From positions 28,112 through 92,111 of the forward strand of contig JAFGOA010000014.1 in assembly GCA_016926735.1 (NCBI GenBank): a stretch of DNA of 64,000 nt, given 5' to 3'. Under the pieces are notes generated by a model. The model was not told the DNA's origin, ran no database searches, and worked only from the letters and a program-made list of their open reading frames with translations. The position numbers and the translations under genes were made by a program. Positions within the stretch are counted from its first letter, which is position 1. Every line of letters starts with the position of its first letter. Below, one piece after another: positions 40,111-63,386 of this stretch. Source of the DNA: Promethearchaeota archaeon. Its GTDB lineage: Archaea > Asgardarchaeota > Lokiarchaeia > Sigyniarchaeales > SOKP01.

Positions 40111-41790
40111 ATGAACACAATTAAAGACGTAGAGGAATCAGGAAAATCAGAAAAAGATACACTCCCAAGTAAGCAGTTAGATGCCTTAAAGTATTTAGAA
40201 AAACTCGCTGGTAAAAATCTTTCCATAGTAAGCAAAATAACCTATGAAAAAGGAATAACGATCGAAAAAGGGCAGATAACGGGACTTAATCTTGAATATT
40301 GTGGACTAACATCTGTTCCAGACGTATTGACTGCTTTTCCAAACCTTCAAATTCTTGTCTTAAAGAATAATAAACTTAGTTCCCTTTCTGAGACAATCAG
40401 TCATCTTGGATCTCTTAAAGAGCTATATTTAACTGGAAATCCCTTAGAGAACCTTCCTGAAGTGATTGGAGACCTAAATGAGCTTGGAAAATTATCATTA
40501 ACCCATACTCATCTAGAAACGCTTCCAGAATCGTTTGGAAACCTCAAGAATCTTCAGTGGCTAAATTTAGAAAATAGTAAAATATCCCATCTTCCAGAAT
40601 CGATTGGGCATCTTAAAAATCTTAAGAGACTAATCCTTAATAACAATTATTTAAAAGAGCTTCCAGAATCAATTGGACACCTTAAATCGCTTGAATCTCT
40701 CAATTTGGTATATAATAAATTAATTAAACTACCTAACTCAATTGGAAATCTCTCATCCCTCAGAGAACTTAGCATTTATAGTGAATGCCTCACAAAAGTT
40801 CCTGAATCAATTGGTAATCTTATCTCACTTAATAAACTTAATCTTCATAGCAATATCCTCTCAGACGTTCCAGAATCTATAGGAAATCTTACTTCCCTTA
40901 AAGAACTTAGTATTTATAGTGATAACCTCCCAGAAGTTCCTGAATCAATTGGTAATCTTAACTCACTTAATAAACTTAATATTCATAGTGATAAAATCTC
41001 AGAGCTTCCAGAATCTATAGGCAATCTTCCATCACTTACAGAACTTAGTATTTATTGTGATAACCTCCCAGAAGTTCCTGAATCAATAGGTAATCTCACT
41101 TCCCTCAAAGATTTCTTTTTGAGATCAAGAATAGAAAATCTTCCTGAATCAATTGGGAATCTCACTTCTCTTGAGTCTTTAAACCTTTCTAACAATCGCC
41201 TCTCACAACTTCCAGATACAATAACGAATCTTAAAAAGCTTAAAATCTTAAGAATTGGGAGAAACTTTACGGAATTTCCAAGGATAATACTAAAGCTCAC
41301 CACACTCCAGGAATTATATCTTGGATTTAATAAGTTGGAAACGATTCCCGAATCAATTGAAAAGCTTAAAAATCTTAAAGAACTATCCTTTCATAATAAT
41401 AAGTTAAAAGATATCCCTGAGTCAATAGGGAATCTAACTTTGCTCCAAACCTTATGGTTAAAAGATAACCTGTTAGAAAAGCTTCCTGATTCTATAGGAA
41501 ACCTCAAGGAACTTCGCTTATTATATCTTCACTCTAATAACCTCGGATCACTTCCAGATACAATTCAGAATCTTACAAAACTCGAAAGGGTTTATTTACA
41601 AGAGAATTACGAGATGGAAGAAATTGATCTCTCTCTATTTAAGAATTGTGAAAGGTTGTATCTACTAAATCTGCCATATCCTTATAACATAGAAAAATTC
41701 TATTGGACGGGCTCAAAAATACCTGAAAAACAATCTATTCCTAGAGGTCTCTGGAAATTTTACTCAAAATTAGTTCTAAGAAAAAAATAA
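40111..41790 (+). CDS. Leucine-rich-repeat protein (559 aa)
   Basis: About 18-20 tandem ~23-aa units of the type LPESIGNLTSLKELSIYSDN; no obvious signal peptide. Confidence 0.92.
   Translation: MNTIKDVEESGKSEKDTLPSKQLDALKYLEKLAGKNLSIVSKITYEKGITIEKGQITGLNLEYCGLTSVPDVLTAFPNLQILVLKNNKLSSLSETISHLGSLKELYLTGNPLENLPEVIGDLNELGKLSLTHTHLETLPESFGNLKNLQWLNLENSKISHLPESIGHLKNLKRLILNNNYLKELPESIGHLKSLESLNLVYNKLIKLPNSIGNLSSLRELSIYSECLTKVPESIGNLISLNKLNLHSNILSDVPESIGNLTSLKELSIYSDNLPEVPESIGNLNSLNKLNIHSDKISELPESIGNLPSLTELSIYCDNLPEVPESIGNLTSLKDFFLRSRIENLPESIGNLTSLESLNLSNNRLSQLPDTITNLKKLKILRIGRNFTEFPRIILKLTTLQELYLGFNKLETIPESIEKLKNLKELSFHNNKLKDIPESIGNLTLLQTLWLKDNLLEKLPDSIGNLKELRLLYLHSNNLGSLPDTIQNLTKLERVYLQENYEMEEIDLSLFKNCERLYLLNLPYPYNIEKFYWTGSKIPEKQSIPRGLWKFYSKLVLRKK
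40780..41160 (+). repeat. Near-identical two-unit (~138 bp) repeats inside the LRR gene
   Basis: The block SLRELSIYSECLTKVPESIGNL.SLNKLNLHSNILSDVPESIGNL recurs as SLKELSIYSDNLPEVPESIGNLNSLNKLNIHSDKISELPESIGNL and again in part, with high nucleotide similarity. Confidence 0.75.
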
Positions 41791-47785: not shown

Positions 47786-48796
47786 CTAAACCTCTTCTGA
47801 AACAAAAAATTTATTAACTAAACCCAATGCAAGCGTTCTAAAAGCATCATTAACATTATCTCCCGTTTTAGCTGATGTTTCAATATAAGAAATTCCAAGA
47901 TCTTTTGCTAAAGCCTCTCCTTCCTCTCTTGATACTTGTTTTTTATCTTTTAAGTCTATTTTGTTTCCAATTAAAATAAGATTGATATCGGGAGTTATTG
48001 CTTTTATTTCATTATACCATGATTTAATGTTATCATAAGTATCTTTACGGGTTACGTCATATACTAAAAGACCTGCTTCTGCGTTTCCTAAGTAATTCTT
48101 TCTAACACGCTTAAATTGTGTTTGTCCGGCTAAATCCCAAAGAACAAAGCGGACTAAGGTGTCTAAATCATCAAATTCGCATTCTTTTTTCATAATACTA
48201 ACCCCTATTGTTTCTTTGTAATCTTGAGCAAATGTCCCTTCTACAAATCTATGTACCATGCTTGTCTTTCCAACTCCTCCATCTCCTCCTAATATTAACT
48301 TAAAAGCATATTCACTAGCATTAATTTTTATTTTTTGGAGTTTATCAACCTTTCTCTCTATATGAGAACCTGTAAGAGATGAGATTTTTGGAATAACAGG
48401 ACTAACGGTTCTTCCATCAAAAATACGAGCGATTTTTTCAGCAGTTAAATACGCTAAAGGAAAGACGGGATCAATCATTGCCAATGAATCTAACACAGTT
48501 ACAAAAACAGCCTCTGGACCTGCTTCACAAAATATTAATCGATATTCATCAGTATCAAAGGTACCAGTACCAAATGAACCAGAGCTAAATTCTTGTGTTA
48601 TTCTATTTAAAACAGGTTCTACTAAAGCACTTAAACCCCCTACAATATCTTCCTCAACTGATTTGTCACCTGATCCTGAAATTGTATCCATAATTAAACC
48701 CTCTCGATTAACAATTATTGCCGCAACTAGATCATCTTTTATTTCTTGTCTGTACCATTTCAATAAAGCACTTAATTTTTCCCTATCTACTGACAT
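47786..48796 (-). CDS. Roadblock/LC7 domain fused to Rab/Ras-like small GTPase
   Basis: N-term LVAAIIVNREGLIMDTISG... (roadblock-like); C-term GGDGGVGKTSM (G1), ETIGV (G2), WDLAGQ (G3), GNKIDL (G4), ETSAK (G5). Confidence 0.93.
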   Translation of the reverse strand: MSVDREKLSALLKWYRQEIKDDLVAAIIVNREGLIMDTISGSGDKSVEEDIVGGLSALVEPVLNRITQEFSSGSFGTGTFDTDEYRLIFCEAGPEAVFVTVLDSLAMIDPVFPLAYLTAEKIARIFDGRTVSPVIPKISSLTGSHIERKVDKLQKIKINASEYAFKLILGGDGGVGKTSMVHRFVEGTFAQDYKETIGVSIMKKECEFDDLDTLVRFVLWDLAGQTQFKRVRKNYLGNAEAGLLVYDVTRKDTYDNIKSWYNEIKAITPDINLILIGNKIDLKDKKQVSREEGEALAKDLGISYIETSAKTGDNVNDAFRTLALGLVNKFFVSEEV

Positions 48797-48964
48797 AAAT
48801 TTTTCACTTAGATTTTTTAAAAATTCATATTGTTTTATCTAAAAATCAATAACTACTTTCTTTTTAAATAATATTTTAGAAATTTAAATTTTTAGAATAC
48901 TTAAATAATCAATAATTAAGATATGATTCTTTGTATTTATTATTTTTAATTTCAAAGAAAAAGA

Positions 48965-49729
48965 TTACATTATCAATAATTCATTTCTTTTAAGAGTATT
49001 TTCTAACATACTTATTTTTTGGATACATTCTGGATTCTCTGCAGTAAAATCATCCGTTTTTAAGATATATAATGTACCTATACCATCCACGTTTTTAATC
49101 ACAAAATATTCTTCCAAACCTTCAATATCTATCATTAGTTGAAAAAATGTTAAATATCCTGTCATTATTGGTGGTTTTCCATGTGTTTGCTTGGATAATT
49201 CATGAGAAATAATTCTAACGTGGTAAGGTTGCCAATGATTTATTGAAGTCGTCATTAAGTTTTCCATTATCTCCAATCTATAGAAATCTTGCCATTCAGA
49301 TTTTGGGAAATTTATTATAATATTGTTATAAACCTCTTCTTTTGCCTCTACATCTGTTCTTTCTGGTTGTTGATACATTCCTGCCCTAATAAAGATGGTG
49401 AATGTTTTATCTTTTCTATTTACATATTTCATTTGAAATCCTGTTGGTGAATATGATTCTAATGTTAAATTTGTACCTTTCGTCCCATTTGGTTTATAAT
49501 AATACGTATCATCCGAAAAAATTAGTGGAAATATAGTTGTTTTAAAGAATTCCTCTTCAAGAATAATTGGAATATACTTTTTTGTAGTTTCATTATATAC
49601 TTCTAATTCTTTAAATGCAGGATGGACTTTTGCTAGGGATTTTAAATAATTTAAAGATTCTAAAAGATATTCAGTAACATTTATCATCCTCCCTTTCCAA
49701 TATGCTCCTAAATAAAAATCTTCTTTCAT
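48965..49729 (-). CDS. Imm52-like (polymorphic-toxin immunity protein-like) protein
   Basis: N-terminal FYLGAYWKGRMINVTEYLLESLNYLKSLAKVHPAFKEL resembles the Imm52 'lgaYWxxR' opening; assignment from memory of the family. Confidence 0.45.
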   Translation of the reverse strand: MKEDFYLGAYWKGRMINVTEYLLESLNYLKSLAKVHPAFKELEVYNETTKKYIPIILEEEFFKTTIFPLIFSDDTYYYKPNGTKGTNLTLESYSPTGFQMKYVNRKDKTFTIFIRAGMYQQPERTDVEAKEEVYNNIIINFPKSEWQDFYRLEIMENLMTTSINHWQPYHVRIISHELSKQTHGKPPIMTGYLTFFQLMIDIEGLEEYFVIKNVDGIGTLYILKTDDFTAENPECIQKISMLENTLKRNELLIM

Positions 49730-49875
49730 TTAAAATTGGCTCTCTAATCTTCAATGGAATATTTCAAAAATAAATAATAAAAAAATAAAAACTTTAGGAA
49801 TAATTAAAAAAGAAAATTAGAATAATATAAGGGAGATAATAAAATTCAAATAGAGAATTCTTTAAAAATCATTTA

Positions 49876-50808
49876 TTATTCTTTTAAAGATTGAGCAATG
49901 ATAATATCTACAAAATATTTGTTTTCTTCAATTTCTACGTTGTTAAATAGACTATATAAGAGAGTCATTATTTCTTTATTGTTGATTGTTTGATAATTTG
50001 AATGTATATCTAAGGGTAAAAAGGATTTTAATTGATTTTTATATTTTTCAGGGGAATTTTGCAATAGTTCTATTATTAGATCATTTACAATGTTGGGACG
50101 GGAATATTCCTCTTTATTTTCTAAAGCTAAACAAAAAACACCTTTTTTTTTTAAAAATTTTTGATATTTTTCAATATTATTTTTGAATTCTGGAAATATT
50201 TTTCTCCCAATCACGAAAATAAAATCCATACTTTGGGGTTTCATTTCTAAATTCATATCAATTTGTTTTACATTTATTTTTGTTCTTTTGAAAAAGAAAT
50301 CAATGTTATAATTTTGGATTTTTAAAGGATTTACATAAAGATTGAGATTAATATTAAAAGGTATAAAAAAACTATAGATGGTAGTTATTTGATTTTCAAA
50401 GGTATATTCATCTGGAAAACTTATAAAACAATTCTTTCCTTCAAATTTTTTAGAATCATATCCTCGTTTTCTAAAAATCTCATGACATAGTGTTACTGAA
50501 ATCTTAAGATATCTATCAAATATTAAACCATAAAAAAAACTAGCAGATTCTATTATATTACTGTAATATAATTCTTTTCCCTTTTGAGTCAAAGTAAGAA
50601 TTATCCTATTTGGACCATTTGAAGAATCATTTGTATCTCCTTGTACCAAACCATTATTTTTCATAAAACGTAGTATTTTATAGAGATATGAAGATTTCTG
50701 AATAATGCCATTCTCTGATAAGATAAGAAATAGATCATATCCATAAGTAGGAGTATTATTTAAAATTTTTAAGACTTCAAATTGAATGAGTTCTGATTTT
50801 TTTTTCAT
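49876..50808 (-). CDS. PadR-like winged-helix protein with degenerate methyltransferase-like C-terminus
   Basis: FEVLKILNNTPTYGYDLFLILSENG...LYKILRFMKNNGLV...ILTLTQKGKELY: PadR-like HTH; the later MDFIFVIGRKIFPEFKNNIEKYQKFLKKKGVFCLAL resembles a SAM-MTase strand pattern. Confidence 0.65.
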   Translation of the reverse strand: MKKKSELIQFEVLKILNNTPTYGYDLFLILSENGIIQKSSYLYKILRFMKNNGLVQGDTNDSSNGPNRIILTLTQKGKELYYSNIIESASFFYGLIFDRYLKISVTLCHEIFRKRGYDSKKFEGKNCFISFPDEYTFENQITTIYSFFIPFNINLNLYVNPLKIQNYNIDFFFKRTKINVKQIDMNLEMKPQSMDFIFVIGRKIFPEFKNNIEKYQKFLKKKGVFCLALENKEEYSRPNIVNDLIIELLQNSPEKYKNQLKSFLPLDIHSNYQTINNKEIMTLLYSLFNNVEIEENKYFVDIIIAQSLKE

Positions 50809-50891
50809 AGTGTATTTATTATCTATTTAATTGAATAAAACCAATTATTCAAATTAATTGAAAAAAAAAAAGTTAATCAAAAAAAAAAAAA

Positions 50892-52115
50892 TTATTCATA
50901 TCGTAATGTTTTTATTGGTTCTAACCTTGATGCAGCCCAAGCGGGGTATAAACCAAAAATGATTGAAACTCCAATACCAAAGAAAAATGCATCTCTTATT
51001 AGAGACAGGGTGAATATTGGTTGAATAATCCCAATTTCAACACCCATCATTTGAGTACCTAAATCTCCAATATAACCACTAAAAACATTCGCAAAAATCC
51101 ATCCCATACCAATTCCTACAAGAGATCCTACCAATCCAATTATGATGGATTCAGATAAGAAAACCATTATCAAAGATTCATTTTTCATCCCTAAAGCTTT
51201 TAAAATTCCTATTTCTCTTTTACGTTGTATTAGGGAAATAAACATTGTATTCATAATTCCAATTCCACCTACAATTAGTGAAATTGTAGCTATTGTTCCT
51301 AAAAATGACTCAATAGAACTGAATGTTGATTCAATTGCTTCAATATAAATTATTGGAGATATTATTTGAACTTGAGAATTGAACATATCATCTATTTCAG
51401 AAGAGACACTATTGATGATAGATTCATTATTGTCATCTAGCATAAGAATAAAGTAGGTGACAATTTCTATATCAAATATTTCCTTCATTTTTTCAATTTG
51501 TAGATATATTCCTTCATCGCTAGGCCCAATTCCGATAAATAGGCCCCCTAAATTCTTAAGACTTCCAGCTACAGTCCCTTTATATGTTTGATTTCCATAA
51601 ATAGCGGTTATATTTATAGATTCTCCAATATTTACAACATTAGTTATGTAATCTCCTATGACAAATTGAGTACTATTCGCTTCTGATGGAATAATTCCAT
51701 TTTCAACAATAAACCGATTTGGATAAAGAACACCAAAATTACTAAAATCAACACCAAAAATAGGCACTATTTCATCATCTGAATTATTAAAAATGGCATA
51801 GCAATATATTTGAATTATAGGTACTACTAATATTACATGATCTATGTCTTGAAATGCTGTTATATTGTTGTAATAAAGTTGAAAAGAAGGATCATTTTCT
51901 TCAAATAATCTTATATCCTTATGTACAACTAGTGTTTTTGTGCTAAAACCCTCTTCAAATTGTGATTTTACGGTAGTTTCAAATCCATTACTAAGGGAGG
52001 AAAGACTGGTTATTGCAGCAATACCAATTAAAACTCCTAATATTGTCAAAAAACTTCTCAATTTGTGTGTCACCAGAGATTTTCCTGCGTATCTAAAATT
52101 GTTTATCAATTTCAT
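50892..52115 (-). CDS. MacB/FtsX-type ABC transporter permease
   Basis: N-term SLVTHKLRSFLTILGVLIGIAAITSL and C-term QRKREIGILKALGMKNESLIMVFLSESIIIGLVG...YPAWAASRLEPIKTLRYE. Confidence 0.95.
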   Translation of the reverse strand: MKLINNFRYAGKSLVTHKLRSFLTILGVLIGIAAITSLSSLSNGFETTVKSQFEEGFSTKTLVVHKDIRLFEENDPSFQLYYNNITAFQDIDHVILVVPIIQIYCYAIFNNSDDEIVPIFGVDFSNFGVLYPNRFIVENGIIPSEANSTQFVIGDYITNVVNIGESINITAIYGNQTYKGTVAGSLKNLGGLFIGIGPSDEGIYLQIEKMKEIFDIEIVTYFILMLDDNNESIINSVSSEIDDMFNSQVQIISPIIYIEAIESTFSSIESFLGTIATISLIVGGIGIMNTMFISLIQRKREIGILKALGMKNESLIMVFLSESIIIGLVGSLVGIGMGWIFANVFSGYIGDLGTQMMGVEIGIIQPIFTLSLIRDAFFFGIGVSIIFGLYPAWAASRLEPIKTLRYE

Positions 52116-52136
52116 TTATTTCACTTCTCTTAATTT

Positions 52137-52841
52137 TTATAAAATTCCTAGTTTTTTTCCTATTTGAGGATTATTTATCAACTTTCCATCAATTAAATAT
52201 TCAATCCGATCTGTTAATTTTGCAATTTCTGAATCGTGGGTTATCATTATAACTGTGATACCTTTTTCTTTATTTAATCTCTTTATATAAGACATTATGA
52301 TATCTCGAGTTTTAGTGTCAACATTTCCAGTGGGCTCATCCATTAATAAATAAGTTGGATCTTGAGCTAATGCGCGAGCAATTGCAACTCGTTGTTTTTG
52401 CCCTCCACTAAGTTCATTAGGTTTGTGATTCATACGATCTCCTAATCCCATGGCCTCTAATATTGATGATATTCTCTTTTTCCGTTCTGATCTTGAAATA
52501 TTTTTTATAATTAATGCTAATTCTATATTTTTATATGCTGATAATCGAGGAATTAAGTTAAAAAATTGAAAAATAAATCCAATTTTCCTTCTCAATTCTG
52601 CCCTCTTATTGTTACTTAGTCTAGAAATATTTATCCCATTTACAATAATTTCACCTTCAGTTGGGATATCTAACAATCCAAATAAGTTTAATAATGTAGA
52701 TTTACCAGAGCCAGAGGGGCCAAGTATCGAGATAAATTCTCCCTCTTCAATATTTAGATTTATCCCCCTTAAAGCATGGACTATTATCTTACCTTGGATG
52801 TAAGATTTCTTTAAATTATCTGTTTTGAGTATATATTTCAT
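52137..52841 (-). CDS. MacB/LolD-type ABC transporter ATP-binding protein
   Basis: GPSGSGKST, NELSGGQKQRVAIARALAQDPTYLLMDEPTGNVD. Confidence 0.97.
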   Translation of the reverse strand: MKYILKTDNLKKSYIQGKIIVHALRGINLNIEEGEFISILGPSGSGKSTLLNLFGLLDIPTEGEIIVNGINISRLSNNKRAELRRKIGFIFQFFNLIPRLSAYKNIELALIIKNISRSERKKRISSILEAMGLGDRMNHKPNELSGGQKQRVAIARALAQDPTYLLMDEPTGNVDTKTRDIIMSYIKRLNKEKGITVIMITHDSEIAKLTDRIEYLIDGKLINNPQIGKKLGIL

Positions 52842-53164
52842 TTTTCTTTACAAACCCTCATATTTTATAAATATTTAATTTCCAAAATCTAGCAGTAAAT
52901 ATAAGTAATTAAGTGAATTTTGACTAGTGTCCAATTTTCCAATAGATATGAGAATTTACATCTCTTTTAAAACGCACTTTCTTTGAAGAAAAGAATTAAT
53001 GAGCGTTGAAGTTATCTTAAAAATGAATAAGTACTTAAAAATAATACGATCCACTCGTGGTATTGTTTTTAGAAATAATTCTTAACTAACAAAAATTTTT
53101 TAGTAAACAATAATTAACATAAAAAAGATTTAAATGCAGATAAAATAATTATTTTTTCCTTTCA

Positions 53165-53686
53165 ATGTTAGAATTTCGCTTAGCTAAGAAAAGAGATTTA
53201 GAAATTATTCTATCTCTCTATAATAGAACTAAAAATGATTTATTGAAAAATAATATTTTACAATGGGGGACTTGGGGGGATGGATATCCAAATAGAGATT
53301 TTATAAAAGATAGAATAAGAAAAAAAGAGCTCTTTGTATTGACATATTATGATAAAATTATTGGTTCTGTAAGTTTAAATCAAGAACAATCAATAGAATG
53401 GAACATTATTTCATGGGAGGGAGACATCGAGAGTTCTCTTTTAATTCATGCGATGATTATAGATCCAACACAACAGGGGAATGGCTACGGTTCCAAATTA
53501 TTAGAATATTGTGAAAATTATGCTAAAAACCAAGGTTTAAAATATATTAGATTAGATGCTTTTACTAAAAATAAGATATCAAATAAATTATACTTAACTC
53601 GGGATTATAAAAACCTTGGAACTGTAATATTCAGATTTAAACCAGAAAATAATCAAGAATATTATTGTTATGAGAAAGAATTATAG
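53165..53686 (+). CDS. GNAT-family N-acetyltransferase
   Basis: IIDPTQQGNGYGSKLLEYCENYAKNQGLKYIRLDAFTKNKISNKLYLTRDYKNLGT. Confidence 0.9.
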   Translation: MLEFRLAKKRDLEIILSLYNRTKNDLLKNNILQWGTWGDGYPNRDFIKDRIRKKELFVLTYYDKIIGSVSLNQEQSIEWNIISWEGDIESSLLIHAMIIDPTQQGNGYGSKLLEYCENYAKNQGLKYIRLDAFTKNKISNKLYLTRDYKNLGTVIFRFKPENNQEYYCYEKEL

Positions 53687-53908
53687 TAAATATCAAACGA
53701 TACCATTTTTTTTTATCAAATTTTGCATTAAATAATTGGAATATACTATTTTTTTACTATAGGATATTTAAACTAAAAAGAAATAGACAATCAAAGATTA
53801 TGCAATCTTTTTATATTACTCTCAGAGATAGTAAAAATTTTAAAACATAGATTATTTTTGTTAGTAATTAATATTTTCAAATAAAATTAAAATATTCTAT
53901 ACTTCAAT

Positions 53909-54105
53909 GCGGGGGTTGCCAAGAGCCCTAGATGAAAAAACTAGCATCTATTCAACAGATCTTAATGCTCAATAATCGAGCAGGCTGGAAATCTGGTCTA
54001 CGGCGTTGCGTTGAGGTCGCAATGGCAATGGCATAAAAGAGAAAAAAAAAGAAAAATATTTTTGCCGCCAACAGGCCTTCGTGGGTTCGAATCCCACCTC
54101 CCGCA
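53909..54105 (+). tRNA. tRNA-Leu (anticodon GAG) apparently interrupted by two non-canonical introns (D-arm and variable arm)
   Basis: 5' GCGGGGGTTGCCAAG and 3' GTGGGTTCGAATCCCACCTCCCGCA pair (GCGGGGG/CTCCCGC, T-stem GTGGG/CCCAC); anticodon arm TTGCG TTGAGGT CGCAA (54006..54022) uninterrupted; ~69 nt extra in the D-arm and ~40-45 nt extra in the variable arm. Confidence 0.85.
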
Positions 54106-54234
54106 TTTTATTTGAATTGCGATTTAATATTATATTTCTAATTATCACGTTTTTTATATTGTATAAATATATATAATCCTAAAATTAAGAAATTCATAGG
54201 AATTCAACATAAAGATTTATTTACAATTCAGAAT

Positions 54235-54942
54235 CTATTTATTCTTTAAAGTAATTAGTTTGTTATTTTGTAGTAAATTCTTTATTTTTGGTGATATACA
54301 TAGAGTATTATTCTCTGAATCAACATACTTGAGTATATTTTGTTCTAACATAATTTTAAGAATAGAATACACTTTTTCTCTCGCAATATCTACATTTTTA
54401 TGGACATCTGCCATTTTGATATCCTCTGTAGATAAGATTAAATCCAGGATTTTTTGATTTTTTTTTTTTTTCAGAAAATAATGAAGTTTTCCAAGATCAT
54501 CATCCATGGTTATAGGAAGAAAAACACTATATTTTCCAATTTTTATTTTTTTTATTAAGTCGAATTTCATAAGAAGTTTTAAATGCCAGAGAAATTGACC
54601 TGTACTTCCTGATTGAAGGTTGAATACTTTTTCTCTTAATAAAGAAAAGGTTGCTCCATTATTTAAATAAATAAGATCATACATTTTTCGTCTATATTGA
54701 TTAAATAAAACGGTTTTTTTAGTATGTTTTGATCCATCAATAAGGATTTTTTTGCTAAATAAAAGTTGGATTATTTCTAATAATCCTTTACGGGGTATTT
54801 GTAATTGACGTTTTGATCTACTATAAATAATCTCTATATTTAACACTTTATTTTCATTGACAATCTCTTCAGCGACTTCCAAAACTTTTTGGACACTGAG
54901 ATGCTTTGATTGAATAATTGAATCTGAAATGTTAGAGATCAT
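54235..54942 (-). CDS. Tandem winged-helix transcriptional regulator (235 aa)
   Basis: LIYLNNGATFSLLREKVFNLQSGSTGQFLWHLKLLMKFDLIKK and VDIAREKVYSILKIMLEQNILKYV: two HTH-like segments. Confidence 0.65.
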   Translation of the reverse strand: MISNISDSIIQSKHLSVQKVLEVAEEIVNENKVLNIEIIYSRSKRQLQIPRKGLLEIIQLLFSKKILIDGSKHTKKTVLFNQYRRKMYDLIYLNNGATFSLLREKVFNLQSGSTGQFLWHLKLLMKFDLIKKIKIGKYSVFLPITMDDDLGKLHYFLKKKKNQKILDLILSTEDIKMADVHKNVDIAREKVYSILKIMLEQNILKYVDSENNTLCISPKIKNLLQNNKLITLKNK

Positions 54943-54952
54943 TTTTATTAAA

Positions 54953-56269
54953 TTATATATTTTTATTTTCTTTATTTTTATTATTTAGGATATTAAATTT
55001 GGTATCTAATTCTTCTAATTCATCAACATTTTCATTATAAAATTCGAGAAACTCTTCTGATAATGAAATAGGAGACTTTGCTAAATCTGAATGTATATCT
55101 TCATATTCAGTCTCCTGTCTAAACAAGTTTTTATATTTTTCTTCTATAAATTGAGGTAGACTTAATTTTTTATACGATAATAATAGGGGATGTTTCTTAT
55201 CTTTAACAAATCTGTAGGGAAAATTGGAGAAATATTTCAATATTAATTCATAAGCAGATTGATATTCACTCATATCTACACATCCTTTCTTTAGAATTCG
55301 TTCAAATTTATCTTCAAAATCTTTTGAAAAATGTGAAACCGCAGTTCTTAAAAGTTTAGAGGATTTTGTAGCAACAAGGCCAATTGTGATATATTTTGCT
55401 TTATTAAGAATTACTATACCCTCATCTAAATGAATATCTACTAGACTTCCAATATTAATTACTTCTTCACTAAGAGTTTGAATGGTATTAAGAAATCCTG
55501 TAAATGTAATCTCATTTAAATTTGACTCTGCCCAATCATGATCATATAACGGATATCCTTCATTATTCTTTACTAATAATCTATTAACTCTAAATGGTAA
55601 AATATAAAGAAGTTTAGGTTCTCTATATATGGCATATATAGTTATTCCCAATCCTAAAAACACAGTAATATCAGTTAGACTTAGGAAAATGTAGTGTATT
55701 TGGATCATGAACTGGAATGATATTGTTATAATTGAGCAAAGTAAAACGCCAATAAAAAAAATATTACCTTCCTTTTTAATGAGAATAGGGACATTCAATC
55801 TAGTTTTAAGTCCCCAATAAAACATATATATCGCATACATTGCAGTAATAAATAGAAATAATATTCGATAAACTCCTGTTATTTTCGAAGCCTTAAATCC
55901 ATTTGCTTCTATTGTTGTCACTCCACCAGGTTGAAAAGCTAAATATAATAGTAAAATACCCATTGCAAAAACAAGATAAAGACTATATGTTTTACTTGTA
56001 TCTTTAATAGTATAATTTATTCCAATAACAGCAAAGAAAACTGCTGGAAAAGAAAGAATACCTACAGTAATAGCACAGATTTCATAATTTAAGGTTGCTA
56101 AACTATCAAAAAATTTCAAAGCAGCCATTATAAATAAGGAAATTTTAATATAAAACAATGAAGGAATATTTTTGACTTTAGGTTTGATTACCATGAAAGT
56201 TGCTATTAAAAAAAAACTGATAGATCCTATTAACTTGATCAAAAACTCAATAAATTGTAAAATATACAT
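54953..56269 (-). CDS. Multi-pass membrane protein with C-terminal cytosolic domain, likely sensor partner of the regulator
   Basis: 438 aa, about 7 hydrophobic segments in the first 220 aa, then soluble domain; 10 nt from the regulator gene on the same strand. Confidence 0.7.
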   Translation of the reverse strand: MYILQFIEFLIKLIGSISFFLIATFMVIKPKVKNIPSLFYIKISLFIMAALKFFDSLATLNYEICAITVGILSFPAVFFAVIGINYTIKDTSKTYSLYLVFAMGILLLYLAFQPGGVTTIEANGFKASKITGVYRILFLFITAMYAIYMFYWGLKTRLNVPILIKKEGNIFFIGVLLCSIITISFQFMIQIHYIFLSLTDITVFLGLGITIYAIYREPKLLYILPFRVNRLLVKNNEGYPLYDHDWAESNLNEITFTGFLNTIQTLSEEVINIGSLVDIHLDEGIVILNKAKYITIGLVATKSSKLLRTAVSHFSKDFEDKFERILKKGCVDMSEYQSAYELILKYFSNFPYRFVKDKKHPLLLSYKKLSLPQFIEEKYKNLFRQETEYEDIHSDLAKSPISLSEEFLEFYNENVDELEELDTKFNILNNKNKENKNI

Positions 56270-56616
56270 TTTAGCTTCAAATAACCTCTATAAATTTCGA
56301 ATTATTTTGATAAGATTAAATTTAAATTGAAAAATAAAATTAATTCTTGGAGAATAACTAATTAATTTTAAATAATTCAACTCCGACCATTTGATTTTTT
56401 GTCTAAATCCACGATGTTATTCCCTATTAATATTATACTTACGGATATATAAATGTTAAGACAAAAAATCAAAGATAAAACAACACTTTTCCAATAAGAT
56501 CTTTAGTCTATATAGATATTCTCTTGAAATTGTTATCTTTAAAAATATTGAATTAGAATTTTTATACAAAAAAATAACAAATTAAGATAAAATCTCTCTT
56601 TAAATAAAGAAACTAA

Positions 56617-56692
56617 AAGAAATCTGATAATTTTTGTTGTTTAATTTTAGGATTGATTATTTGTAAGGTTAAGAACATATTCTTCAATTAAA
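56617..56692 (-). pseudogene. Relic of the polD2 3' end
   Basis: Revcomp TTAATTGAAGAATATGTTCTTAACCTTACAAATAAT[caat]CCTAAAATTAAACAACAAAAATTATCAGATTTCTTTTAG = LIEEYVLNLTNN..PKIKQQKLSDFF* versus PolD2 LIEEYVTSLTNNPKIKQQKLSDFF*, with a 4-nt insertion. Confidence 0.88.
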
Positions 56693-56698
56693 ATGTTC

Positions 56699-56792
56699 CA
56701 ACATAAAAATTCATTTATATTTCTGAATCTATTTTTTCTTTAGAGTAAGCAGTATATTATTTAATAGTAAATTCTTTATTTTTGGTGAAATA
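56699..56792 (-). pseudogene. Relic of the 3' end of the 54235..54942 regulator
   Basis: 56699..56792 aligns ungapped with 54205..54298 at roughly 85% by eye; encodes SPKIKNLLLNNILLTLKKK* versus SPKIKNLLQNNKLITLKNK*, stop codon kept. Confidence 0.85.
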
Positions 56793-56834
56793 TCATTTTA
56801 TAGAAGAAAAAATTATATAATAAAAGAATAACAA

Positions 56835-57233
56835 ATGAATAACTATAACTCTGTATATCTTGACTATCTTAGAATGCTTCCTTTTATTATATATGCTATT
56901 TTACTAATTATTTTATCGTCACTTAGCCAACCATATCCTATACAACCTCCGAAAGGAGTTACTTTTTATCTTAATTATATCCTTCATATAATTGAGTTTG
57001 CTGGGTTATCATTTTTTGCATTTTTTGGATTTTTTAAAAGAATAAAGTCTTTATCCATATTATTATTCTGCGTTCTTTTTGCTATATCCGATGAAGTCCA
57101 TCAATTCTTTGTTCCTAATAGATTTTTTGATTTTTTTGATATTTTAGTTGATTGTATTGGAATTATCATCGGGTATGCCTTCTATTTATCTATATTAAAA
57201 ATAAAAAAGGAAATTGAAAGGAAAAAAAAATAA
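56835..57233 (+). CDS. VanZ-like membrane protein
   Basis: YLNYILHIIEFAGLSFFAFFGFF...FAISDEVHQFFVPNRFFDFFDILVDCIGIIIGY: VanZ-like signature (DExHQ..P.R....D...N..G). Confidence 0.9.
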   Translation: MNNYNSVYLDYLRMLPFIIYAILLIILSSLSQPYPIQPPKGVTFYLNYILHIIEFAGLSFFAFFGFFKRIKSLSILLFCVLFAISDEVHQFFVPNRFFDFFDILVDCIGIIIGYAFYLSILKIKKEIERKKK

Positions 57234-57263
57234 ATAAAAATTGAAGGAATAAAAAAAAAATAT

Positions 57264-57770
57264 TTATCTTTTTGGACTTTTTTTAAGATATCTCTCACAT
57301 TTTTTCCTGAAATAATAAATGTGAATATATTTATTTCCGCCAGTAATGATTATAAAACCACTGATAAATATTAAATAAGGACTTGACATTATTGAAAAAA
57401 ATATTAAAAACATCTGAAAACCGATAAGTAATCCTAAAAATGAAATAAGGACTGAAAAGCAATATAGAGTAAATATCAACCTGACTAACGTATGATATTT
57501 CTTTAAAATTGAATATTTTAATCTCCATTTATCATACTTACTATTATAGTAGCAAGCATGACAAATCAATTCATATGATTCATGTAATAATTGATTTTTT
57601 TCTCTATCAACGATATGAATTAATGCTTTTCTCTTACATTTAGAACATATATATTTAAAACAGAGATTGCACTGAATAAATGCTTGTTTTTTTGGATGAT
57701 AATAACATTCTTTACTTTCAATTTTTACATCCTTCCTTTTCTTCTTGAGATTCTTACTTTTTGCATTCAT
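57264..57770 (-). CDS. B-box-like zinc-binding membrane protein
   Basis: CYYHPKKQAFIQCNLCFKYICSKCKRKALIHI...LICHACYYN followed by two hydrophobic segments. Confidence 0.75.
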   Translation of the reverse strand: MNAKSKNLKKKRKDVKIESKECYYHPKKQAFIQCNLCFKYICSKCKRKALIHIVDREKNQLLHESYELICHACYYNSKYDKWRLKYSILKKYHTLVRLIFTLYCFSVLISFLGLLIGFQMFLIFFSIMSSPYLIFISGFIIITGGNKYIHIYYFRKKCERYLKKSPKR

Positions 57771-57904
57771 TAAATACCACCTCTTTTTTTTTTGGATCTC
57801 TGATCAAGTAAAAAAAGATAGGTAATATAAGGGTACTATATATATTTTCCATAATTTATATAGAAAATAAAACAAACTATAGCTTTTTATATTATTTATC
57901 ATGA

Positions 57905-58197
57905 TCACTCAAGAATACACCTTCCTTCAGGGAGGTAATGAATTGAGCTAAATTAAAAATTATCAAATTTCACTAAACTTTCAATCTCTCATTCCTTTTA
58001 AATTAATCTATTTTAGTATTTTAATAAGGAAATTCAGATTATAACGTTGAATTTCTTATTGCATGAACCCTTTGTGAACGAGGAATTATTCCCAAAACAA
58101 TGGAATGGTTTTCTACGATAAACAGGCCAATCCGTAATAGAAGCGATTGTGTACTCGTAGGAAGCCACGACCTTCAAGTCGTGTGTAGTTCACTGAA
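57905..58197 (+). mobile_element. Remnant or MITE-like trace of an IS200/IS605-type element
   Basis: Right-end-like ggaagccACGACcttcaaGTCGTgtgtagttcactg at ~58159..58196, the typical tnpB 3'-end hairpin plus GTAGTTCAC-like tail; candidate left hairpin acctTCCttcaGGGAggt at ~57918..57937. Confidence 0.5.
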
Positions 58198-58226
58198 AAG
58201 AATCTATGATTTTAAGTAATTAATTT

Positions 58227-61200
58227 TTAAAAAAAATCAGATAATTTCTGTTGTTTGATTTTAGGATTATTTGTAAGACTTGTAACATATTCTTCAATTA
58301 ATTCCATTCGTTGATGGGTATAAGCATCTAATTTAAAGTCTTCACATAATTTAATTGCTCTATCAATATATTTTTCAATACCTCCTCGATTTACGGTTAA
58401 AATAATTTTATTTCCACATTTAGGGCATTTTCCTGAATTTGAAATTGGAGGGCGCCGATATTTAGTATTACATTTAACACATCTAAATGTTTGAACTGAG
58501 AATTTCCTGAGATTTCCTAAAATATCTGGATTAAAGTGTGTTGATAATATTTTACTCGCTACGTTTTTTGCATCAACAGCTTTTATAATTTTAGCAAGAT
58601 GTAATTGTGCTTCTATTTTATCATCCATTGATTCATGCAATTTATAAGCAGTAACTTTAGGGCCTTGGTTGATATCATCTGTAGGTATATTATATCCAAT
58701 ATTCTCATATTGTTCCTCAGTTCCTAATTTATTTTTGACAAGATTCATTATTTTTTCAATTTCATTAGGAGATGCATAACGTTGAGTTGCCTCATAAAAC
58801 TCTAAAGGATATCTAAATAAGGTATCAACATTATGAGCCTCACTATCGATCTCATTAGGATCTAATAATGTGCTGATTACCAAAGTAGCATCCATCCTAC
58901 CACCAATCTTACTTGGAAGATAATTTCTTGAGAAGTTGAGAAGCGGATCTAAGAGAAGCATAACTGCATCCTCATCTCCGTCGCACTGCGCTGTGATAAG
59001 CCCATTTAAAAGCGATATATTGTGATATTCCCAAATTTGATAATTTTTATTCACTATTTCTAAACAATATGAGGGATATTTATAAGAATTTGTTTCAATC
59101 TTTTTTATTTTATCTCCAAAAAAATCTTCACTTATTTTAGGAAATTTTCTGGGTTCGGGAAAATTATTTTTTAATATTATATTTAAATTCTTTTTCTTTT
59201 TTTTATGTTTTAAATCAAGATGTTGTAATAATAAATCATTTTCCATTCCTGGTAAAACTACTTGATATAGAGGATTATTTTTTTTTGGTTCTTTTCCTAG
59301 TTCTTTATATCTTTCTAAAATTTTCTTTCCATATCGTCCTCCCTTACCAATAATAATTCTAGCTTTTATTTTTAATGTTGAGAATAAAAAACAATAATCT
59401 TTTGATAGTTTTCTATTGCCTGTATATATCGATGTTCTTGTTGTTCTGGGAATAATCGAACAATTACCATCAATGAGAGCTGATATGAATGGATATTTAT
59501 ATTGTTTAGGTAGACTATAAATAAATGTAGGAATTCGTTTTGAAAGAGCGGTTAATCCCGTTTTCCAAGCATATGCAAAAAGATAAGCATGAATTCTTCC
59601 TGAATGAACAAGTTGTTCATTATCTGTTTGATGATACGGTTCTGATTCAAAAAGACTGATAATTAATTGTCTCACATGTTCTCTTAAATCGAGATTTGGA
59701 ACACTTATATTTATTTGATAAGCACTAGGTTCATCTCGAATATAACCTTCAGAGATATAATATCCTAGATACCTCATTAAATTTGTATTAAATTTTAAAT
59801 AAGGATTTATTGTATAATCATCTCTTGCCATTCCTAAGCGGCATTCTTTTGGAATTTCGTTCCATTCAAATATTCTTTTTTTATGTAAACTTTCAAGATG
59901 ACTTAGAGGAATAGAATTATACCAATCATATTTTAATGGATCTTTATATGGTTTTGATGGTAGAATCTTTTTTATTAATATTCTTATATCTCCAGGAATT
60001 CTTTGATATTCTTTTGAACTATTTAATCTTTTAATCCTTTTTCCATAACGTATGATTATTTGTTGTATCCAATTTGAAGCATTTCTTAATCTTACATTTT
60101 GTTTAAATTTATTAAACTTAGGATTATTTGGTAAATGAAGAGAAAGTTCTTCTAATATATTTATAAATTCAGGTGGATTATTTATTGGTAAATTTGGATT
60201 GATAAGGTGAGGTAAAATATCCCCTTCTTTCAGAAATTTTGCCCTTATTTTTTCAATAGAGTTTTTTTCTTCATTCCAAATTATCATTTTATGATCTGGG
60301 GTTACTTTTATGAATCTTCCCGTTTGGGTTTTAATTTGAATCCATTGATCACTTTGCCCCTTTATCCAATATTTAATGGGTTGGAAAATTGCTTTTTTTG
60401 TAATTGGATCAATACTAATTACTCTCCAATTTTTATAGAGATTTTCGACCTCAATAGTTCCAAAATCATCAATTATTTTTGTTTTAGCACCTTTGTGAAT
60501 CAATTCTTCAACAATATCACCTATATTATTTAGTATGATTTGTTCTTTATCACTATCCCAAATAATAATTTCTTCATTCCCTGATAAACAATTTCTTCTT
60601 TTTGCAGCATGCCAATATGGATGGGCATAAATAGATCTTGCTGGTGAAAATCCAATAATTCTGCCAATAATTCCTGCACTTGTGTGAGGAGCAAGTCCAA
60701 CAGTTAAATGTCCAATAAGATCATCTCTATTTTCAACATTATAATATCGGTCTAAATGATAAAAATGCTCTAGTTCATCATCTAAGAACTTAGCCACTTT
60801 AACGAGATATTCCGCACAATCTTCTGAAAGTAATATATCCTGAACATTTAATTCGATAATTTGATTTTCATTTTCAAGGATATTTCCTTTATAATCATGC
60901 TTATAACCCAATTCTCTGAGTTTTTCAAGAGAGACGCCTATTTCTTTCGGTTTAAAATGTGTTAATGGAATATCTGTAGCATCATATCTTATTTCAGCTG
61001 TTTTATATACTAATACATCATTTTTTGCCCTTAAAATGCCTTTTTCAATAGGTTCTGGTACTTTAAAAGCATTTGTTAATCCAAAAATCCCTTTTAGATT
61101 TGATGGAATTTGCATTTTCAATTTTTTGGATATGAAATTCATATATACTCTTATATTAAAATTCTTTTTAAGGGAAGGTTTAATCAATTCATTACATTTA

Positions 61201-63386
61201 GGACAGTTCGTGGTTTGTTCAGGATCAACTTTTTCATATGTAGTTTTACATTTTGGACATATTGATCTTAACTCAGTGTGAGAATTACATTTTGGACATA
61301 TATTAAACATGGTTATACTATTACATTTAGGACACTTTCTCCTACATACTTCAATAGAAATTTCCCCTTTTTTTACATTCTCTTCCTTTTGTATATTATT
61401 TTTTTTATTTTTTATACCAAGTTTCATTCCAATATCCCCAAATTTATCAAATCTCTTCGTATTTTCAACTGCATCTCCAACCAGTCTTGTATTTCCTACA
61501 ATCTCACTTAAAGGGAATAATGTATGAATGCCTTTCATGGTTTTTCTTTCTGATTTTTCTGGTCTTCCCATACGAGATCCTACAAAATAAGGTGCTTTAT
61601 TTTTTATTTTAATTGAAGAGAATTTACTAAAATAGGTAAATATATCCTCTTCTTTCTCAATCTCTATATTTTTATATTTAGAAAGATTAAAAACCTCAAT
61701 ATAAATTGTATTCATTTCTGAATCAAAATAGATGTGATTATCTTTAATTGTATGAAGGATGAAAGCTTTCTCAAGAATTTTTTTTATTGTTTTTTCATTT
61801 GGGATAATAATAGATTTTTCATCTTTGTTATATCCTTTTTTAAATTCTTCTCTAAGAATTTTAAGTTCCTCAACATTTAAATTATACCAATAATCAAGAT
61901 ATTTTGGATGTAATGGAATACTATATTCCAATGATAATTTAATTGCTAATTCTGGTGATGGAATATTCTCAAAGGGCTCATCTATATATTTTTTGAAATC
62001 ATCGATTTTTTCTTTTTTTTCTCTAAGGGTTTTTTTTAATTCTAAGCTCCACCATTCCTCAACATAACCAGATGGAATTAATTTATGATTATTTTCTGAA
62101 AATTCACCATAACCAAATAGGATATCACCAATAAAAAGAATTTTTTTTATATTTGGGAAGATCTTTTGAGCTTTCTTAACATTATTAACTTGAATAACAT
62201 CTCCATTTTTTAGTTTTACAATTGGTGGTTCAATTGAGGATACTGGAGACACACTCGTACTTTTCCCTGGTCTTTCAATTCTTAATTGGGTTCCAATAGC
62301 TATAAAATTATCTAATAATACCATTGAAGCCGGATGAATTCCTCCAGCAGCCAAACCTGTATTTCTTGAACGACCATATCTTAATCTATGGCCTCCAATA
62401 CGGGATGGATGACTGAATACGGGTCTTCCAGCAATAATATCTGCAATATATTTTGGATTAGGAACAATTTGATTTTTTCTTTCTTTCTTTTGTTTTACCT
62501 CTTTTTCTAGGTTATCTTTTTGTTTTTCTTTATGTGCAATGTTTTTTATTTCACCAAGCCAATCCCATCCCTCTAATTTCATTATATTTGCTATTTTAAG
62601 AAGTTTTGATGATTTTGATAAGATTCCATCATTTAGCACTAAACAAGCACCTCCCCGAATTTTATTTGTTTCTACTCTTGGAAGGTCTCTAAAAGCTGAT
62701 ACTTCTTCTTCTTCCGTAGAATCACCATTTATTTCAACAGGAAGATGTTCAACGGCAAATCGTATTTCATTATTCGTAGATGGATATTGTAAATGTACTC
62801 TTCTATCATACATTTTAACTTCCTCAACATATCTGCCAATTTCTCCTTCTGTTGCTTCATATTTTGGAATATTTGATTTATTTCTTACAAAATCTGCAAT
62901 TAACAAACATAATCCTGCTGTAGTCCCTCCAGCGGCTCTAATTGGACCTGCAAAATATAAAGAAAGATATCTCCTCCCTTGCTGATCCGTTTTTATTAGT
63001 ATTTTAGATATCCCTTCTAAAGGAGCACTTACAACTCCCATAGTTTTTATAGCTAAGCCTACTCTAATAGCTCTTTCAACTCTATCATCTAAATTTTGAA
63101 TATTTCCAATTTTTTCCTCTAAAATATCTGAAACAACCTGAAAAACAATGAAATCTTCACTTTTACCCTCTGTTTTTAATTTTCGAATTAAATCAGCAAC
63201 GCCTTGTGGTCCAACTAATTTTTCTACTCTACCTGCTAAATCTTTTGCTTGAGGAGATTCTACAAAAATTTCGGGATCAAATCCTTTATTTCTAGCTTCT
63301 TCTGCAATTTTATAACTTTGTTTTATTTTTTCTTGAAGATTGTTGAAATATTCTTCCATTTCTTTACTCATTACAACCATGATCAA
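58227..63386 (-). CDS. polC: DNA polymerase D large subunit (DP2), with intein
   Basis: 1719 aa; AGPIRAAGGTTAGLCLLIADFVR, RKCPKCNS zinc motifs, HTSAGIIGRIIGFSPARSIYAHPYWHAAKRRN | CDGDEDAVMLLLDPLLNFSRNYLPSKIGGRMDATLVIS; C-terminal PIP-like QQKLSDFF. Confidence 0.97.
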   Translation of the reverse strand: MIMVVMSKEMEEYFNNLQEKIKQSYKIAEEARNKGFDPEIFVESPQAKDLAGRVEKLVGPQGVADLIRKLKTEGKSEDFIVFQVVSDILEEKIGNIQNLDDRVERAIRVGLAIKTMGVVSAPLEGISKILIKTDQQGRRYLSLYFAGPIRAAGGTTAGLCLLIADFVRNKSNIPKYEATEGEIGRYVEEVKMYDRRVHLQYPSTNNEIRFAVEHLPVEINGDSTEEEEVSAFRDLPRVETNKIRGGACLVLNDGILSKSSKLLKIANIMKLEGWDWLGEIKNIAHKEKQKDNLEKEVKQKKERKNQIVPNPKYIADIIAGRPVFSHPSRIGGHRLRYGRSRNTGLAAGGIHPASMVLLDNFIAIGTQLRIERPGKSTSVSPVSSIEPPIVKLKNGDVIQVNNVKKAQKIFPNIKKILFIGDILFGYGEFSENNHKLIPSGYVEEWWSLELKKTLREKKEKIDDFKKYIDEPFENIPSPELAIKLSLEYSIPLHPKYLDYWYNLNVEELKILREEFKKGYNKDEKSIIIPNEKTIKKILEKAFILHTIKDNHIYFDSEMNTIYIEVFNLSKYKNIEIEKEEDIFTYFSKFSSIKIKNKAPYFVGSRMGRPEKSERKTMKGIHTLFPLSEIVGNTRLVGDAVENTKRFDKFGDIGMKLGIKNKKNNIQKEENVKKGEISIEVCRRKCPKCNSITMFNICPKCNSHTELRSICPKCKTTYEKVDPEQTTNCPKCNELIKPSLKKNFNIRVYMNFISKKLKMQIPSNLKGIFGLTNAFKVPEPIEKGILRAKNDVLVYKTAEIRYDATDIPLTHFKPKEIGVSLEKLRELGYKHDYKGNILENENQIIELNVQDILLSEDCAEYLVKVAKFLDDELEHFYHLDRYYNVENRDDLIGHLTVGLAPHTSAGIIGRIIGFSPARSIYAHPYWHAAKRRNCLSGNEEIIIWDSDKEQIILNNIGDIVEELIHKGAKTKIIDDFGTIEVENLYKNWRVISIDPITKKAIFQPIKYWIKGQSDQWIQIKTQTGRFIKVTPDHKMIIWNEEKNSIEKIRAKFLKEGDILPHLINPNLPINNPPEFINILEELSLHLPNNPKFNKFKQNVRLRNASNWIQQIIIRYGKRIKRLNSSKEYQRIPGDIRILIKKILPSKPYKDPLKYDWYNSIPLSHLESLHKKRIFEWNEIPKECRLGMARDDYTINPYLKFNTNLMRYLGYYISEGYIRDEPSAYQINISVPNLDLREHVRQLIISLFESEPYHQTDNEQLVHSGRIHAYLFAYAWKTGLTALSKRIPTFIYSLPKQYKYPFISALIDGNCSIIPRTTRTSIYTGNRKLSKDYCFLFSTLKIKARIIIGKGGRYGKKILERYKELGKEPKKNNPLYQVVLPGMENDLLLQHLDLKHKKKKKNLNIILKNNFPEPRKFPKISEDFFGDKIKKIETNSYKYPSYCLEIVNKNYQIWEYHNISLLNGLITAQCDGDEDAVMLLLDPLLNFSRNYLPSKIGGRMDATLVISTLLDPNEIDSEAHNVDTLFRYPLEFYEATQRYASPNEIEKIMNLVKNKLGTEEQYENIGYNIPTDDINQGPKVTAYKLHESMDDKIEAQLHLAKIIKAVDAKNVASKILSTHFNPDILGNLRKFSVQTFRCVKCNTKYRRPPISNSGKCPKCGNKIILTVNRGGIEKYIDRAIKLCEDFKLDAYTHQRMELIEEYVTSLTNNPKIKQQKLSDFF
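58986..60590 (-). mobile_element. Intein (535 aa) with LAGLIDADG-type homing endonuclease motifs inside DP2
   Basis: Starts CLSGNEEIII after AAKRRN; VTPDHKMII block B-like; LGYYISEGYI and FISALIDGN LAGLIDADG-like motifs; ends SLLNGLITAQ before CDGDED. Frame and coordinates checked (1605 nt). Confidence 0.93.

What the first reader, a model, noticed from the sequence alone, without database searches (positions are those of the whole stretch)
56617..56792. Second relic junction: polD2 3' end abutting the regulator 3' end
Seen: 56617..56692 copies the PolD2 C-terminal codons (LIEEYV..LTNN..PKIKQQKLSDFF*) with a 4-nt insertion; 56699..56792 copies the end of the 54235..54942 regulator (SPKIKNLL.NN..LTLK.K*). 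The order regulator 3' / polD relic / regulator relic / polD 3' is the interleaved pattern expected from tandem duplication of a segment with later loss or replacement inside one copy.
Basis: partly seen in the sequence, partly recalled or inferred. Interest (0 to 1): 0.75.

Follow-up and report, generated by a model that had tools for sequence, protein, structure and literature searches.

The report
Duplication scar beside a polymerase gene
A 180-base stretch in a Lokiarchaeal genome holds fused, dead copies of the ends of two neighbouring genes, most likely the surviving joint of an old tandem duplication; this is ordinary genome wear rather than a working element.

Summary
Window 56614-56691 copies the last 25 codons of the DNA polymerase D large-subunit gene (58228-58301; 83%, 82 bits), with a 4-nt GATT insertion. 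56699-56792 copies the regulator's 3' end plus 30 nt of flank (54205-54298; 85%, 107 bits). The best chance match in 200 shuffles was 42 bits. Both pairs are unique in the genome. The order A - B'|A' - B, all direct, is what a tandem duplication of about 54205..58301 leaves at its joint.

No relative shows the pre-duplication order. The sister species has the gene next to polD2 (57264-57770) but no close ortholog of regulator or sensor, so both copies, not one, must have lost genes. No other trace of the second copies was found. A rival, two short patches copied into one break, needs no later losses and is not excluded. Divergence of 12-15%, against 44% at 4-fold sites between the two species, suggests the event followed their split. 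A two-strain assembly chimera is unlikely.

Verdict: an ordinary rearrangement scar, private to one Lokiarchaeal MAG. One speculative oddity: the insertion creates a 21-codon ORF ending in an intact PCNA-binding motif.

The parts
54205..54298 (-). A: source of the regulator relic: last 21 codons of the regulator plus 30 nt of its downstream flank
   Evidence: blastn self-comparison; alignment
54235..54942 (-). Intact regulator gene, 235 aa, winged-helix (weak TrmB-like match, below the curated cut-off)
54953..56269 (-). Partner membrane sensor-like gene, 438 aa, no Pfam match; paired with the regulator family elsewhere in this genome and in relatives
56270..56613 (.). Spacer upstream of the sensor; no detectable homology to any part of the other copy
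56614..56691 (-). B': dead copy of the polD2 3' end (25 codons and stop) with a 4-nt GATT insertion
   Evidence: 83% to 58228-58301, E 5e-18; frames
56692..56698 (.). Filler at the joint; with its neighbours forms a small fold-back AATGTT-CC-AACAT
   Evidence: sequence
56699..56792 (-). A': dead copy of the regulator 3' end (21 codons) and 30 nt of flank; no start codon, no body
   Evidence: 85% to 54205-54298, E 1e-25
56835..57233 (+). VanZ-like gene, 132 aa, beside A'; also found beside a polD2 end in contig C188 of G001
57264..57770 (-). B-box-like (Cys/His-rich) membrane protein gene, 168 aa; its neighbourhood with polD2 is shared with G001
   Evidence: 79% identical in G001, adjacent to polD2; the B-box name is my reading, no Pfam match above cut-off
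57863..58197 (.). Inserted repeat, probably an IS605/TnpB 3' remnant; multi-copy in G001
   Evidence: matches L058, L073 and L076; TnpB assignment by reading of RDLNSAINI, not by a family match
58228..58301 (-). B: source of the polD2 relic: C-terminal codons of polD2 with the PIP-like tail QQKLSDFF

Best explanation
56614-56792 is the surviving joint of a tandem duplication of about 4 kb. The duplicated segment ran from just downstream of the regulator (54205) to 74 nt inside polD2 (58301). The end of the first copy (polD2 3' end, B') was joined, with a few filler bases, to the start of the second copy (regulator 3' end, A'). Redundant genes were then lost from both copies: the polD2-proximal genes from the left copy, the regulator and sensor from the right. 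What remains is two abutting dead gene ends. Shown: the two repeat pairs, their order and orientation, their similar divergence, and their absence from relatives. Inferred: the full-length intermediate, the losses and their order.
For: Two significant direct pairs and no others in the interval. The order A - B'|A' - B, all direct, is what a tandem duplication predicts. Similar divergence of both pairs, 14/94 and 9/74. The joint is absent from 40 relatives. Divergence is well below the 44% at 4-fold sites between G000 and G001, placing the event after their split. Linkage of the tRNA-like gene and polD2 is seen independently in G001.
Against: No pre-duplication order in relatives. No residue of the other duplicated genes. 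Both deletions must have stopped within about 100 nt of the joint; a 175-nt remnant spanning the joint of a roughly 4-kb redundant zone is about a 5% coincidence by my rough estimate. B' is about as close to the polD2 of a different genus (10 differences to L086/LW40) as to its own (9), though 74 sites do not resolve this.
Confidence: 0.55

Rival explanations
1. Two short templated patches: a break between sensor and VanZ was repaired by copying about 78 nt from the polD2 3' end and about 95 nt from the regulator 3' end before rejoining. No whole gene was duplicated and none was lost.
For: Only about 80-100 nt on either side of the joint survive, with sharp outer edges and nothing else of the supposed copies. 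Filler and a small fold-back at the joint.
Against: Must accept by chance that both patches are direct and in the order a tandem duplication would give (about 1 in 16, my estimate). No clear microhomology at the outer edges.
Confidence: 0.27
2. The regulator-sensor-B' block came from a related Loki lineage in which polD2 lay next to the sensor, and recombined here, leaving its polD2 end and the local regulator remnant side by side.
For: B' keeps the last 13 residues, with all four differences synonymous, and its other differences lie mainly in one 6-nt block, as if it came from a once working allele. No close ortholog of regulator or sensor in G001 (best 46-47% and 43%).
Against: No lineage with that order is known. 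A' without a regulator still needs a separate loss. Two of the four differences are derived in the functional gene by outgroup comparison.
Confidence: 0.12
3. Assembly chimera of two strains.
For: This is a 238-contig MAG with 4.8% estimated contamination. A foreign or strain-variant polD2 end occurs in the sister MAG (contig C188).
Against: B' carries a frameshift that would remove the conserved PIP-like tail from a working polD2. B' and A' share no stretch that an assembler could use to merge them. G001 confirms the surrounding linkage.
Confidence: 0.05

Closest known systems
Tandem duplication join points with later differential gene loss, as known in bacteria (own knowledge; related papers listed, seen as titles and abstracts only)
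   Same: Direct repeats in the order expected, a new joint between the end of one copy and the start of the next, filler at the joint
   Different: The copies themselves are gone; only about 180 nt at the joint remain, so the full duplication is inferred
Templated insertions at repaired breaks (e.g. Helicase Q paper PMC8654963, abstract only, C. elegans)
   Same: Short patches copied from nearby sequence, with filler at the joint
   Different: Described mainly in eukaryotes; here the patches would be about 78 and 95 nt and both direct
Gene 3'-end attachment sites of integrative elements (own knowledge)
   Same: A gene 3' end occurs twice as direct repeats with other genes between
   Different: No integrase between B' and B; leaves the regulator relic A' unexplained

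Membership tests
Tandem duplication joint | Two direct repeat pairs in the order A - B'|A' - B | tested here: met
Tandem duplication joint | Both pairs of similar age | tested here: met
   14/94 and 9/74 differences; short sequences, so coarse
Tandem duplication joint | Pre-duplication order in a relative | tested here: not met
   not found in the other Loki polD2 loci; only one genome of the same genus is held. Absence of a close relative makes this a weak test
Tandem duplication joint | Further duplicated sequence on either side of the joint | tested here: not met
   later deletion could explain it
Templated insertion | Patches bounded on both sides, nothing else duplicated | tested here: inconclusive
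   consistent; the pre-insertion site is unknown
Integrative element with a gene 3'-end attachment site | Integrase or other mobility gene between the repeats | tested here: not met
   between B' and B only VanZ, a B-box-like gene and an IS605-like relic
Assembly chimera | No reads span the joint | not testable with these tools
   reads not available

The most novel reading that the evidence does not exclude
The GATT insertion in the polymerase relic puts an ATG in frame with the intact PCNA-interacting tail (56613-56678, minus strand: MFLTLQIINPKIKQQKLSDFF*). If expressed, this would be a 21-residue free PIP-box peptide made from a polymerase fragment, which could compete with PolD for the clamp. 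B' keeps all 13 C-terminal residues, with four differences from B, all synonymous.
Probability: 0.03. Interest if true: 0.6.

Novelty: new member of a known kind. Interest (0 to 1): 0.18.

Why it matters
It records a rearrangement next to an essential replication gene in a Lokiarchaeon, in a stretch beside polD2 whose gene content differs almost completely between two species of one genus. By itself it explains no function and changes no general idea; it is mainly useful as a marker of local genome turnover and as a caution about which copies are genes.

Tried and rejected
Attachment-site or mobile-element origin: no integrase, and it does not explain A'. Homology between the sensor-B' spacer and the B-box-like gene region, VanZ, the own polD2 flank or the sister's intergenic DNA: none above dinucleotide shuffles. 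Translated search for further relics of regulator, sensor, VanZ, B-box-like gene, M28, enoyl-CoA hydratase or polD2 in 48800-58300: only the two known relics. A tree of B' with eight polD2 ends: unresolved. Search of 40 relatives for a second copy of the joint: none, only polD2's own ends. Papers on Lokiarchaeal tandem duplications or on such relics in archaea: nothing to the point.

Full report
Observation. In 200 dinucleotide-preserving shuffles of 54000-58400 the best self-match was 41.9 bits. In the whole assembly neither pair has a third member; the next matches are AT-rich background. B' reads as the polD2 C-terminus (LIEEYV..LTNN, 4-nt insertion GATT, NPKIKQQKLSDFF*), and A' as the regulator C-terminus plus 30 nt of its downstream flank.

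Setting. The window lies in a Lokiarchaeal MAG (G000, 3.88 Mb, 238 contigs). The closest held relative, G001, matches the record of Lokiarchaeota bin106. In most other Loki genomes the polD2 3' end lies close to the gene equivalent to 47786-48796, a Ras-family GTPase, often with an M28 peptidase or an enoyl-CoA hydratase-like gene between. Here about 9 kb intervene. In G001 the order is: homolog of 54000-54112 (end of a tRNA-like gene), an HTH protein of 418 aa, a surface-like protein, an IS605-like relic, the homolog of 57264-57770, polD2. So the stretch between the tRNA-like gene and the gene beside polD2 has turned over between two species of one genus. A small contig filed under G001 (C188) carries VanZ - M28 - hydrolase - polD2 end with a different polD2 sequence, probably from another strain or species.

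What it is. The four pieces are all in direct orientation and in the order A ... B'|A' ... B. That is the signature of a tandem duplication running from just downstream of the regulator into polD2, with B'|A' as the new joint. The divergence is 14 of 94 and 9 of 74 sites, against 44% at 4-fold sites between G000 and G001, and the joint is absent from 40 relatives, so it most likely arose in this lineage after the split. Because the 57264-57770 gene sits beside polD2 in both species, it was probably there before the event. The left copy must then have lost it, and the right copy lost the regulator and sensor.

What speaks against it. If the copies were once whole, one expects residues of the second regulator, sensor or 57264-57770 gene at about 85% identity. 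None is found, by DNA alignment against shuffles or by translated search. Both losses would have had to stop within about 100 nt of the joint. Copying of two short patches into a single break avoids this, but must accept by chance that both patches are direct and in the right order, which I put at about 1 in 16. The joint's filler and small fold-back (AATGTT-CC-AACAT) fit either route. Relative confidence: duplication 0.55, patches 0.27, block from a related lineage 0.12, artefact 0.05.

Artefact check. A chimera of two strains is unlikely. B' carries a frameshift that would cut the conserved tail off a working polD2. B' and A' share no stretch by which an assembler could have merged them. The linkage of the tRNA-like gene with polD2 across this interval is seen independently in G001. 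Reads were not available to settle it.

Function. Nothing indicates a working element. A' has no start and B' is frameshifted. The only possible product is a 21-codon ORF (56613-56678, minus strand) that the insertion opens, ending in the PIP-like motif found in 31 of the 32 Loki polD2 loci scanned. The four synonymous differences in its last 13 codons are suggestive at best, since two of them look derived in the functional gene when compared with outgroups.

Limits. Papers are cited from search listings and abstracts only. The names TnpB/IS605, B-box and tRNA-like rest on my own reading of the sequence, not on a family match: ARAGORN and Rfam did not call the tRNA-like gene.

Noticed in passing
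window 5913-40034 (+): A single open reading frame of 11,373 codons, followed by a leucine-rich-repeat protein (40111-41790); both lie in a roughly 41-kb stretch (956-42042) that is absent at this place in the relatives compared.
   Followed up: no
window 53914-54106 (+): tRNA-like gene with acceptor arms GCGGGGG / CTCCCGC and a T arm GTGGGTTCGAATCCCAC, not called by ARAGORN or Rfam as a tRNA; probably a tRNA with one or more introns. Its 3' part is conserved in G001 (L058 1-130, 76%).
   Followed up: partly
window 58227-63386 (-), residues about 987-1449: polD2 carries an intein; G000 ends it in TAQ-C where G001 has TAN-C, and its homing-endonuclease part looks more degenerate than in G001.
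   Followed up: no
window 57863-58197; L058 3785-3937; L073 12347-12637; L076 7-127: Multi-copy repeat that looks like the 3' end of an IS605/TnpB element, inserted between the 57264-57770 gene and polD2 here and on the other side of that gene in G001.
   Followed up: partly
window 47786-48796 (-): Ras-family GTPase with an N-terminal extension, conserved close to the polD2 3' end across Loki genomes.
   Followed up: no
G000 C192:20931-24213; G001 C195:2456-5803: Sensor-regulator-sensor arrays of the same families as 54235-56269; the families give 23 regulator and 12 sensor matches in this genome.
   Followed up: no
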